The position numbers and the translations under genes were made by a program. From the NCBI GenBank assembly GCA_963922205.1, contig CAWUHX010000150.1:124001-188000 (forward strand): a stretch of 64,000 bases of DNA, given 5' to 3'. Under the pieces are notes generated by a model. The model worked only from the letters and a program-made list of their open reading frames with translations. It was not told where the DNA came from and did not search any database. This document shows positions 30,291 through 39,579 of the stretch, piece by piece. The stretch is from Romanomermis culicivorax (Eukaryota > Nematoda > Enoplea > Mermithida > Mermithidae). Position 1 is the first letter of the stretch. Every line of letters begins with the position of its first letter.

Positions 30291-31183
30291 TGTAACGACC
30301 AGATTTGTGTGAGGTACTTTACTTCTAACCAATCAGTCGATACGGCGGGGACAAATACGGGACGGGGCGCGGGCGTACGATTACAATAAAACAACGCGGA
30401 TCGACGGTCGCTTGAACGTCGACAATAAACGCGCTTCGAATTAAAATACGGACGGGGGCCTCGGTTTAAGTTGCTTTCGAATAGTCGGCCGCTTGCAAAT
30501 GTATAAAGACGGGGCGAGCGCGGAAGTCAAAACGGAAAAACCACAAGAATAAGAATGATTAAAATCACGCTTTGCTTCTTCTTTTATACGGCGATTTTGG
30601 CCACTCCCTGGACACTGCGGGAGGTCGAGCTTCTGTCCATCTTCTTCCGCCAATCGTCGTTTCCTGCTATGCTTTTTATGCTTTCTTAATTACGCCTCTC
30701 TAACGCTTTTCTGGTACCGTATGCTTTCTGTGCTTCACTTGCTTTCTACGGTGGGCTTGGCCACACCTTTGTGCTTCTGTGCATGCTTCCTGTATCGGTT
30801 TCTCTGTATACACACGTTTTGTGGGGCCGCCGCTACTGTTACACTTGAGACTACTGTACGGCGGGGCTTCTACGCATTTTACTGTGTGCAGGTGTTGTTT
30901 ACGATTTTTACTGGGGATTACGGTAGCTGTGGAATGTGTAGTTTAGTGTAGGTTCTAGGGGAACAGCTGCCGTTTGTGCAAATTAATTAGGGCATCTTAA
31001 TTGGGCTACCAGGGTGTGAACGGATCAAAATAAAGTACTTCATGTAATTTTGTAGGAATGTTTGGGTGTGAATCCCAGACACCCTTGAGACGATAAAATG
31101 TGAAAATAAAATAATATCTAATAAATGTCTATTACATACAGTATGCTACATGTTTACAGTACTGCTTTAGCAGGTACGTTACA
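30291..31183 (-). repeat. Element 3 3' LTR (893 bp)
   Basis: Seven differences from 38687-39579. Five are CpG-to-TpG or CpA changes, all in this copy. Confidence 0.93.
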
Positions 31184-31196
31184 TTTCCCTCCTTCC
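31184..31196 (-). promoter_or_regulatory. Element 3 polypurine tract
   Basis: GGAAGGAGGGAAA on the minus strand, directly before the 3' LTR. Confidence 0.8.
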
Positions 31197-31214
31197 GGAG
31201 TTGAACGTCCTCGT

Positions 31215-32675
31215 TCAAGGCTTTCGAGGTTGAGGAGGGGTGGGGATGGATTCGTTAGCTGCTTTCCGAGGGTAGAAAGGGGTTGTCTCGTTTACATGCA
31301 CCGTAAATGTAATATTCTTATGGGGGTGTTTGAGTGTAACGTTGGGGTACATGAAATTTGTGACTGTATAGGGCCCGTTCTGGCCAGGGAGGAATTTGGG
31401 ATCCAGCCCTTGTTTACACGAATGATTTTTATAAAGAATAAGATCGCCTGCCTTGTAATGTATGTTCTGAGCATGCTTGTTATACTGACGGGTATAGTGG
31501 GCTTGGGCTTTTTGCAAACTTTTCTGCACGGTTGAGAGGGCTTCTGTGAAATGCGATTTTACACGAAGGGCGTAATCGTCTAAATCAACCATGTAGGACG
31601 TGGGGAAAAAGTTTAAGGCTGCATCTGACGGCAGATTAGCTTGCCTACCGTGGAGTAATTCAAATGGGGGATATGAAGTGCTATCATTTTTATGAATGTT
31701 GATCGAAAAAACGGCGTACGGGAGATAAGTATCCCAATCAGTGTGATTTGAATTGATGTACATGCGGATACGGGTGGCTAGGGTTTGGTTGCAACGCTCA
31801 ACTTCTCCATTGGCAATGGGATGATATGGGGTAGTGTGAATTTTCTGAGTATTGCATAAACTGGTGATCCGTGAGAAGAGATCCGATACAAAATCGGTGC
31901 CACGATCACAATGGATGATTTTTGGGGACCCATGACGGCAAACAATTTTGGTTACGAATAGCTTGGCAATGGTGGCTGCGGTGATGTCAGGGGTCGGGAA
32001 TGCCTCTACATACTTTGTGAAATAATCGATGAAAACAACAATGAACCGGTTGCCGTCTTCAGTGAGGGGTAACGGTCCCATGCAATCAACACCAACTCGA
32101 TCAAATGGGCCAGTTGGCTGAATTGGTACCAAGTTTGCATGCACCTTGTGTCTAAGAGCTTTCTGTGTCTGGCATGGGTGGCAAGTTTTGCAGTAACGTT
32201 TGATATCACGGCTCATTTGGGGCCAAAAATATTTCTGTCTGAGCAAGTGTAAAGTTTTCCTGGCTGCAAAATGACCTGTGAATTTGCTGTCATGATGTGA
32301 GGCGATGAGATGCTGGACTTGCGACTTGGGAATGTATAGTTTTGCCTGTTTGTCGACTATACGGAAGAGAATGTTTTGATGCACTGCGAATTTGATCAGA
32401 GTAAGGGGGTGTTTTTGGGCGATTTTTGCTAAAATACTTTTGATAGTTGGGTCAGTGCGTTGGAGTTCGGCGAAATTTTTCTGTTGCTCTTCTTGTTCAG
32501 TTGCTTCGGCCTCAAGAACAGAATTGATGGTGGATATTTCGGGACGGGTTTCTAATTGCTCAATATCAAAGGATTGCTTTGCTGTCTGTGAGGGGAATCG
32601 AGAAACTGCATCTGCGTTGCGGTTAGCAGTGCCTTTCTTAGGGCGAATGTCTAGCTGAATACCGGAGAGGGCTAG
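31215..32675 (-). pseudogene. Element 3 RNase H-integrase connector and integrase, cut from RT by a TGA
   Basis: Same frame as the upstream RT, separated from it by TGA at 32676-32678. The first ATG is at 32384, but the frame is open from 32675. Integrase features: a zinc region with HLIASHHDSKFTGHF ... CKTCHPCQTQ, core motifs VGVDCMGPL, IHCDRGTDF and NGEVERCNQT, and a C-terminal beta-rich domain (YKAGDLILYKN ... NGPYTVTNF). Length and layout are normal for a Gypsy integrase. The ORF ends close to the polypurine tract, so there is no gene after pol. Confidence 0.9.
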
Positions 32676-38443: not shown

Positions 38444-38663
38444 TCTTGGTTTACGATGGGATTTCTGCTTAAATGCTTCAATTTTTGCTTCAGGCTGTAT
38501 TCGTTTAAATGTATCGCTTAATGTCTCGTTGGAGGGGATTTCCAGTTTGCTTTCTACGAATACTGCCTTACTGTAGGAAATGATTACTACTGTATTATCT
38601 AATGCTTCTAAATGCCCGGATAAGAGTACACCTAATTGGGGGCAGGGAGTTCCAGTGGTTAAC

Positions 38664-38681
38664 GTAACAGTACGGTCACCA
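38664..38681 (-). promoter_or_regulatory. Element 3 primer-binding site
   Basis: TGGTGACCGTACTGTTAC on the minus strand, five bases from the LTR end at 38687. Confidence 0.7.
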
Positions 38682-38686
38682 AAATA

Positions 38687-39579
38687 TGTAACGACCAGAT
38701 TTGTGTGAGGTACTTTACTTCTAACCAATCGGTCGATACGGCGGGGACAAATACGGGACGGGGCGCGGGCGTACGATTACAATAAAACAACGGGGATCGA
38801 CGGTCGCTTGAACGTCGACAATAAACGCGCTTCGAATTAAAATACGGACGGGGGCCTCGGTTTAAGTTGCTTTCGAATAGTCGGCCGCTTGCAAATGTAT
38901 AAAGACGGGGCGAGCGCGGAAGTCAAAACGGAAAAACCACAAGAATAAGAATGATTAAAATCACGCTTTGCTTCTTCTTTTATACGGCGATTTTGGCCAC
39001 TCCCTGGACGCTGCGGGAGGTCGAGCTTCTGTCCATCTTCTTCCGCCAATCGTCGTTTCCTGCTACGCTTTTTATGCTTTCTTAATTACGCCTCTCTAAC
39101 GCTTTTCTGGTACCGTATGCTTTCTGTGCTTCACTTGCTTTCTACGGTGGGCTTGGCCACACCTTTGTGCTTCTGTGCATGCTTCCTGTATCGGTTTCTC
39201 TGTATACACACGTTTTGTGGGGCCGCCGCTACTGTTACACTTGAGACTACTGTACCGCGGGGCTTCTACGCATTTTACTGTGTGCAGGTGTTGTTTACGA
39301 TTTTTACTGGGGATTACGGTAGCTGTGGAATGTGTAGTTTAGTGTAGGTTCTAGGGGAACAGCTGCCGTTTGTGCAAATTAATTAGGGCATCTTAATTGG
39401 GCTACCGGGGTGTGAACGGATCAAAATAAAGTACTTCACGTAATTTTGTAGGAATGTTTGGGTGTGAATCCCAGACACCCTTGAGACGATAAAATGTGAA
39501 AATAAAATAATATCTAATAAATGTCTATTACATACAGTATGCTACATGTTTACAGTACTGCTTTAGCAGGTACGTTACA
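38687..39579 (-). repeat. Element 3 5' LTR (893 bp)
   Basis: Pairs with 30291-31183. Followed by TTGT (39580-39583), the right target duplication. Confidence 0.93.

What the first reader, a model, noticed from the sequence alone, without database searches (positions are those of the whole stretch)
30291..39579. Gag - envelope - pol order in one polyprotein of a Gypsy-class retrotransposon
Seen: in elements 2 and 3 a Cys-rich, sequon-rich ectodomain with an upstream signal-like segment and a downstream transmembrane helix lies between the Gag zinc knuckles and the protease, in the same frame. Known: env of errantiviruses and retroviruses lies after integrase and is usually made from a spliced RNA. 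Inference: the topology is self-consistent (Gag cytosolic, ectodomain lumenal, protease-pol cytosolic), and signal peptidase could separate Gag from Env. This would be a different way to express an envelope, without splicing. Two copies share it, so it is not an assembly accident.
Basis: partly seen in the sequence, partly recalled or inferred. Interest (0 to 1): 0.92.

Follow-up and report, generated by a model that had tools for sequence, protein, structure and literature searches.

The report
Envelope gene inside retroelement's Gag-Pol
Gypsy-type jumping elements in this genome carry a predicted viral-type membrane-fusion envelope protein in the middle of one long reading frame, between the capsid and the enzymes instead of at the end, so they likely make their envelope as part of a Gag-Envelope-Pol polyprotein, an order we found described for no related element.

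Summary
Confirmed, and stronger than two copies could show. Two searches of the host genome list 119 distinct copies of this Gypsy element; 61 lie in one stop-free frame of at least 2,450 codons. In 8 of 8 copies sampled from the long-frame ones, protease, RT-RNase H and integrase follow the envelope in frame and the 3' LTR starts 31 nt after the stop: no 3' env. Three more families of the genome (38-56% envelope identity) and P0005 from outside keep the order Gag-Env-PR-RT. The middle region matches Pfam PF24664 in 8 of 8 rows, a profile of it finds herpesvirus gB (E 2.4e-7), and its low-confidence model matches gB and negative-strand RNA virus glycoproteins: a predicted class III fusogen. 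It is constrained like pol (pN/pS 0.06 against 0.07). Element 3 is a broken copy; element 2 is open through Env but lacks pol. Translation as one polyprotein, ER insertion and cleavage are inferred; splicing is not excluded. An unspliced Env polyprotein is known (Atlas virus, Env last); the middle position appears new.

The parts
38687..39579 (-). element 3, 5' LTR (893 bp)
   Evidence: 99.2% to 3' LTR; TSD TTGT
36719..38443 (-). element 3, Gag (capsid, CCHC knuckles, Pro-rich linker)
   Evidence: ORF 36359-38776; boundaries transferred from element 2 by register
34950..36718 (-). element 3, Env (broken copy: frameshift and stops inside)
   Evidence: boundaries transferred from element 2
32679..34745 (-). 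element 3, protease (DTG), RT (YLDD), RNase H, same frame as the C-terminal part of Env
   Evidence: Pfam PF13975 3.5e-8, PF00078 3.5e-35, PF17919 8.9e-36; frames and motifs
31218..32675 (-). element 3, integrase (H2C2, DDE, GPY), same frame after one stop
   Evidence: Pfam PF17921 1e-21, PF00665 7.7e-9
30291..31183 (-). element 3, 3' LTR; 31 nt separate it from the integrase stop codon, so there is no 3' env
17632..18532 (-). element 2, 5' LTR (901 bp, identical to 3' LTR)
   Evidence: TSD AACC
17609..17626 (-). element 2, presumed primer binding site (starts TGG, 5 nt inside the LTR)
   Evidence: sequence; assignment inferred
15671..17389 (-). element 2, Gag: capsid, Cys-rich knuckles, Pro/Gln-rich linker
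   Evidence: PF03732 1.8e-5, PF00098 9.1e-10
15587..15658 (-). element 2, hydrophobic signal-like segment ending in CSA before the ectodomain
   Evidence: hydropathy; identical in 12 of 12 loci; cleavage inferred
14021..15586 (-). element 2, Env ectodomain, predicted class III fusion glycoprotein
   Evidence: PF24664 6.2e-19 over its central part, gB by profile, folds
13937..14008 (-). element 2, transmembrane segment
   Evidence: hydropathy
13670..13936 (-). element 2, cytosolic tail leading toward the protease; pol deleted after it (the part matching 31221-34721 of element 3 is missing)
12735..13635 (-). element 2, 3' LTR; purine tract 13636-13648 next to it

Best explanation
This is a lineage of Gypsy-class LTR retroelements with Gag, a predicted class III membrane-fusion envelope glycoprotein and then protease-RT-RNase H-integrase in one uninterrupted reading frame, which likely makes its envelope by translating a single Gag-Env-Pol polyprotein. 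Shown by sequence: order, single frame, many copies, constraint, four families. Inferred: the hydrophobic segment after Gag would act as an internal signal sequence, so Gag stays in the cytosol, the ectodomain enters the ER lumen, and the next transmembrane segment returns the chain to the cytosol with protease, RT and integrase. Signal peptidase would cut Gag from Env, and the element's own protease would free Pol on the cytosolic side, as capsid, envelope and cytosolic protease are arranged in flavivirus polyproteins (recalled analogy). Env would then let particles pass between cells, for instance into the germ line. Chains whose signal fails to engage would stay cytosolic and serve ordinary retrotransposition, which could adjust the Gag:Env ratio.
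For: Frame: 37 of 74 Env matches and 50 of 76 Gag matches lie in frames of at least 2,450 codons, 36 and 46 of them without a stop in the match. 11 of 11 best-scoring loci besides element 2 carry CA, NC, Env, PR, RT in that order; 8 of 11 in one stop-free frame over the 4.77 kb held. 8 of 8 copies, chosen among those with long frames, continue in frame to the end of integrase, then LTR. Families B, C, D: Gag upstream, PR, RT-RH, IN downstream of Env (3 of 3). Env followed by PR in 10 of 10 loci examined of 68 PF24664 matches, same frame in 6. Outside: P0005 is Gag-Env-PR-RT start in one 1,500-aa protein; P0001, P0003, P0004 are Env-PR-RT. Glycoprotein. Hydrophobic segment before the ectodomain in 6 of 6; TM after it in A, B, C, D, P0001, P0003-P0006. 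Constraint: pN/pS Env 0.06, CA-NC 0.10, tail-PR-RT 0.07. Env and RT identities rank alike over 10 pairs (rho 0.89; pairs not independent). Recent insertion: LTR pairs 98.8-100% alike.
Against: No RNA, peptide, particle or fusion evidence. One polyprotein gives Gag:Env:Pol 1:1:1, which retroelements usually avoid (recalled). A signal sequence after about 575 codons of Gag is late for co-translational targeting. P0001 starts with its own Met at the signal segment, so in that relative Gag may be a separate frame. A TTTCAG motif stands just before an in-frame ATG at the ectodomain start, so splicing cannot be excluded. PF24664 covers only the central part of Env. The structure model is weak (pLDDT 56.8; TM 0.34-0.40). 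Many copies are broken: 37 of 74 Env matches lie in shorter frames, and the sampled copies of families C and D have stops or a frameshift.
Confidence: 0.72

Rival explanations
1. The gene order is real, but expression uses splicing: one RNA keeps Env, another removes it in frame to give Gag-Pol, or a short leader exon is joined to Env, as CERV of Cer1 is made from a spliced mRNA.
For: Cer1, a nematode Gypsy element with a 2,272-aa polyprotein and no stop between gag and pol, makes CERV from a spliced RNA (PMC10309623, passages). Three TTTCAG motifs lie in each of elements 2 and 3, one right before an ATG at the Env ectodomain start. Splicing would solve the 1:1:1 ratio.
Against: The motif scan found no strict donor in element 2 and one in element 3, inside Env (few patterns tried). 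Entry at TTTCAG-ATG would drop the signal segment, which 6 of 6 sequences keep and which is identical in 12 of 12 loci. The frame is kept open across both junctions, although the linker before the signal varies.
Confidence: 0.2
2. The envelope no longer serves infection; it is a structural or membrane-anchoring part of particles that move only inside the cell.
For: No evidence of particles leaving cells; the ICTV profile says most Metaviridae particles do not appear infectious outside cells (PMC7879559, whole text).
Against: A glycoprotein with cysteines, sequons and TM persists over families 38-56% alike with pN/pS 0.06 within family A, more than anchoring would need.
Confidence: 0.06
3. Rearranged or misassembled copies simulate the order.
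For: Element 2 is itself internally deleted; element 3 is broken.
Against: 119 distinct copies in two lists, 61 with stop-free long frames, 4-bp target duplications in 6 of 7 testable copies, four families and outside relatives.
Confidence: 0.01

Closest known systems
Errantiviruses (Metaviridae; Drosophila gypsy and kin)
   Same: Gypsy-class pol and LTRs plus an envelope
   Different: Env is encoded downstream of integrase (ICTV profile PMC7879559, whole text); its env is of another family, likely baculovirus-derived according to PMC12440569 (parts 1-3 of 5 read); here Env is between Gag and protease and class III-like
Atlas virus and nematode Belpaoviridae (PMC9094657, passages)
   Same: Envelope of negative-strand RNA virus type, encoded in one polyprotein without introns
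   Different: BEL/Pao pol; order Gag-Pol-Env; class II (phlebovirus Gc-like) fusogen
Anakin (BEL/Pao with chuvirus glycoprotein, mosquitoes; PMC7642597, passages; PMC10084718, passages)
   Same: Glycoprotein of the same broad virus group (chuvirus, Jingchuvirales)
   Different: BEL/Pao element; the follow-up paper reports no clear capture of such a glycoprotein by Gypsy elements, although Gypsy fragments flank them in Hymenoptera and other insects
Cer1 (C. elegans Gypsy element; PMC10309623, passages)
   Same: Gag and pol in one frame, Gypsy class
   Different: Extra ORF (CERV C-terminal half) lies after pol, CERV is made from a spliced RNA and does not resemble an envelope
Flavivirus polyprotein (recalled, no call)
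   Same: Capsid, internal signal, envelope glycoproteins and a cytosolic protease in one chain: works alike
   Different: Not related; no reverse transcription; class II fusogen

Membership tests
Metaviridae (Gypsy/Ty3) | Pol order PR-RT-RH-IN, LTRs, PBS and PPT | tested here: met
   (Pfam domains); the PBS assignment is inferred
Metaviridae (Gypsy/Ty3) | Gag with capsid and CCHC knuckles | tested here: met
   PF03732 1.8e-5 and PF00098 9.1e-10
Metaviridae (Gypsy/Ty3) | RT placed in the Gypsy clade by a tree | not tested
   Only pairwise identity: 39% to element 1 of the window; GPY motif in integrase
Metaviridae with env / Errantivirus | Env downstream of integrase (ICTV profile) | tested here: not met
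   8 of 8 copies sampled end after integrase, LTR 31 nt later; Env lies before PR
Class III fusion glycoproteins (gB, rhabdo-, chu-, bornavirus G) | Sequence family PF24664 above its cut-off (link of this family to class III recalled) | tested here: met
   8 of 8 rows match, families B, C, D; central part only
Class III fusion glycoproteins (gB, rhabdo-, chu-, bornavirus G) | Class III fold | tested here: inconclusive
Class III fusion glycoproteins (gB, rhabdo-, chu-, bornavirus G) | Membrane fusion activity | not testable with these tools
   needs experiment
Anakin / Belpaoviridae | BEL/Pao pol | not tested
   No BEL/Pao model or tree was run; the pol matches the generic RVT_1, RNase H and integrase models and is 39% alike to element 1

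The most novel reading that the evidence does not exclude
A lineage of enveloped, infectious Gypsy-class retroviruses with genome order gag-env-pol, expressed as one flavivirus-like polyprotein threaded through the ER membrane, with a class III fusogen taken from a chuvirus-like virus before the families in this genome split; the Gypsy fragments reported beside Jingchuvirales glycoproteins in insects could be members of it.
Probability: 0.5. Interest if true: 0.92.

Novelty: new variant of a known kind. Interest (0 to 1): 0.86.

Why it matters
The ICTV profile places Env downstream of integrase where Metaviridae have it. Here an envelope sits inside Gag-Pol, under strong constraint, in at least four families of one genome and in outside relatives. 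If translated as read, a retroelement threads its own polyprotein through the ER membrane to make particle, envelope and enzymes from one unspliced RNA. It adds a predicted class III fusogen to Gypsy elements, where the survey of Jingchuvirales glycoproteins saw no clear capture, and it makes testable how a retroelement can balance Gag, Env and Pol without splicing or frameshifting.

Tried and rejected
Rejected: chance or assembly artefact (119 copies in two lists); env at the 3' end (0 of 8 copies sampled); degenerate passenger (pN/pS 0.06); element 2 as founder of a Gag-Env-only family (0 of 5 short-frame copies examined share its pol deletion; the genome-wide search for its junction did not complete). 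Led nowhere: Env searches in viral contigs and genome contigs and pol searches in viral contigs confirmed no relative; single-sequence PDB search of Env gave 0 hits; the first structure model, pLDDT 37, was not used; an SL1 RNA search to identify the host gave 0 matches and no control rang, so the host stays unidentified. RT identity alone does not separate element 3's relation to P0004 (37%) from that to element 1 (39%); families B-D are closer (70, 60, 49%). No RT tree was built. Literature: 'gag-env-pol' with retrotransposon and envelope, 0 papers; searches listed none with this order, judged from listings and the passages opened; only open-licence papers are held.

The pN/pS values are uncorrected proportions over non-independent pairs; L010 was left out of Env and of tail-PR-RT (length differs) and L001 out of tail-PR-RT (no pol). 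A first version of that count used five loci in the wrong orientation and gave ratios near 1; it was wrong and was replaced. The script stopped with an error after printing the values used here.

Full report
What is in the window. Element 3 (30291-39579, minus strand) and element 2 (12735-18532, minus strand) are LTR elements of one family: LTR pairs 99.2% and 100% alike, 4-bp target duplications TTGT and AACC, a TGG-starting presumed primer site and a purine tract beside the 3' LTR. Element 2 matches element 3 at 96% except that the stretch matching 31221-34721, most of pol, is missing. Its frame of 1,317 codons is open from before the Gag start through Env into the tail that precedes the protease. 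Element 3 has all parts but is a broken copy: a frameshift and stops inside Env and a stop between RNase H and integrase. Pfam finds capsid and zinc knuckles, then PF24664 (Monjiviricetes_fusion, E 6.2e-19, over the central part of Env), then protease, RT, RNase H and integrase. Element 1 (about 6-12 kb) is another Gypsy-like element in which Pfam found no envelope in the two frames scanned.

Other copies. The window lies in an unnamed 359-Mb genome of 595 contigs. The Env piece matched in 74 of 74 scored candidates (4,222 in the first look) at 97-100% identity; the Gag piece in 76 of 76 (4,102 in the first look). 37 of 74 and 50 of 76 lie in an open frame of at least 2,450 codons; one and four of these carry a stop inside the match (C40; C23, C37 and two on C81). 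The two lists hold 119 distinct copies, 66 with such a frame, 61 without a stop in the match (and the tables). Only the best candidates are scored, so copy counts are lower bounds and the share of open frames is that of the best matches, not of all copies. Tblastn of separate pieces onto the 11 best-scoring loci other than element 2 gave CA, NC, Env, PR, RT in this order in 11 of 11; 8 of 11 have one stop-free frame over the 4.77 kb held, L009 and L011 have stops, L007 a frameshift before Env. I then took 3' pieces of 8 copies (C115 and C105 are also among the 11), chosen among those with frames of 2,478-2,518 codons. In 8 of 8, PR, RT-RH and IN stand in the Env frame, the first stop comes directly after integrase (1,244 codons after Env) and the 3' LTR starts 31 nt after that stop codon, so there is no room for a second env. 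Their LTR pairs are 98.8-100% alike, two at 100% (C206 over 622 nt only). Four-bp duplications are seen in 6 of 7 testable copies; C126 lacks one, C206 was not testable. The family was active recently.

Constraint. Among copies, nucleotide identity of Env is 96.4-98.7%, yet pN/pS is 0.06 in Env (11 loci, 55 pairs), 0.10 in CA-NC (12 loci) and 0.07 in tail-PR-RT (10 loci). Elements 2 and 3 alone gave 0.13 for Env (547 codons) and 0.19 for Gag (402 codons). The envelope is kept by selection as firmly as pol.

Other families and outside relatives. A PF24664 search of the genome scored 68 of 68 candidates over the cut-off; 14 control genomes gave none. Of the 10 loci examined, 10 have a protease match right after Env (in L039 only 31 residues); 6 in the same frame (L037, L038, L040-L043), 4 with frame breaks within or after Env. 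By Env identity to element 2 they form four families: A (95-98%), B (about 55%), C (41%), D (38%). Upstream pieces of B (two loci), C and D carry a Gag 37, 37, 33 and 25% alike to element 2's. In B the frame into Env is open over 709 and 650 codons with four knuckles. In C the sampled copy has a stop within Gag, in D between Gag and Env, but Gag and Env are in one frame in both. Downstream pieces of B, C and D carry PR, RT-RH and IN, with a frameshift inside integrase in D. Repeats of LTR type were found in B (100% over the 767 nt held) and C (99.4% over 542 nt), not in D. RT-RH identity to A is 70, 60 and 49%, against 39% for element 1 and 37% for P0004; Env and RT identities rank alike (rho 0.89 over 10 pairs; 0.77, p 0.07, over the 6 pairs A-D; pairs are not independent). 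That suggests co-inheritance from one capture; it is no proof. Three searches of 5.8 billion proteins gave 7 relatives (the last scored only the 7,998 candidates sharing most words). P0005 is an unbroken 1,500-aa protein: Gag with its own Met, one CCHC knuckle, hydrophobic segment, Env, TM, protease, start of RT. Its Gag and protease Pfam scores lie just below the curated cut-offs, but they match the Gag of element 2 and the protease of element 3 (E 3e-11 and 1e-12), which element 1's Gag and protease do not. P0001, P0003 and P0004 are Env-PR-RT, P0004 up to integrase; P0001's protease shows by comparison and motif only, not by Pfam, and P0003 and P0004 begin inside Env. P0002, P0006 and P0007 are too short to show the order. 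P0001 begins with Met at the signal segment, so there Gag may be separate.

How it likely works. Shown: order, frame, copies, constraint. Inferred: one translation product; the hydrophobic segment as internal signal; Gag and Pol cytosolic, Env lumenal; signal peptidase after the CSA-type site; the element's protease on the cytosolic side; Env used to pass between cells. The unsolved point is the ratio of Gag to Env to Pol. Partial use of the signal could adjust it. So could splicing: no strict donor was found in element 2, but a TTTCAG-ATG stands at the ectodomain start, and Cer1 is a precedent for splicing in a one-frame Gypsy element (PMC10309623, passages).

Against what is known. The ICTV profile (PMC7879559, whole text) says that where present Env is encoded downstream of integrase. 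Atlas virus (PMC9094657, passages) has one Gag-Pol-Env polyprotein without introns and a class II Env, so an envelope polyprotein is not new. Anakin (PMC7642597, passages) is a BEL/Pao element with a chuvirus glycoprotein; the follow-up (PMC10084718, passages) found no clear capture by Gypsy elements. A preprint (PMC11952523, passages) describes Gypsy elements with a small FAST-like fusogen upstream of gag or, in some Lepidoptera, downstream of pol, another arrangement. A search for 'gag-env-pol' with retrotransposon and envelope found 0 papers. I therefore call the gene order new as far as these searches reach, and the element a new variant of env-bearing LTR retroelements.

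Noticed in passing
window 42832-62445: Terminal inverted repeats (696-790 bp, about 98% alike) enclose an integrase-core and a poxvirus-A32-ATPase-like frame: a Polinton/Maverick-like element next to the retroelements (name recalled).
   Followed up: partly
window 5988-12001: Element 1, another Gypsy-like element with Gag-PR and RT-IN frames; Pfam found no envelope in the two frames scanned.
   Followed up: partly
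window 13667-17620: Element 2 is a pol-less copy with identical LTRs, target duplication and an open Gag-Env frame: it likely moved recently with enzymes supplied by other copies.
   Followed up: partly
window 15578 and 36626: TTTCAG directly before an in-frame ATG at the start of the Env ectodomain, acceptor-like.
   Followed up: partly
genome contigs C180, C26, C2, C81, C25: Successive Env or Gag matches 8,365-8,401 nt apart, close to the element minus one LTR (8,396 in element 3): head-to-tail arrays that seem to share LTRs.
   Followed up: partly
P0002, P0003: Env-bearing proteins filed under Gammaproteobacteria and Desulfobacteraceae metagenome bins: probably animal contigs binned wrongly.
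   Followed up: no
window 1199-4854: Frames of 185, 416 and 631 codons on the minus strand without any Pfam match at E 0.01.
   Followed up: no
window 63521-63596: tRNA-Thr with anticodon GGT.
   Followed up: no
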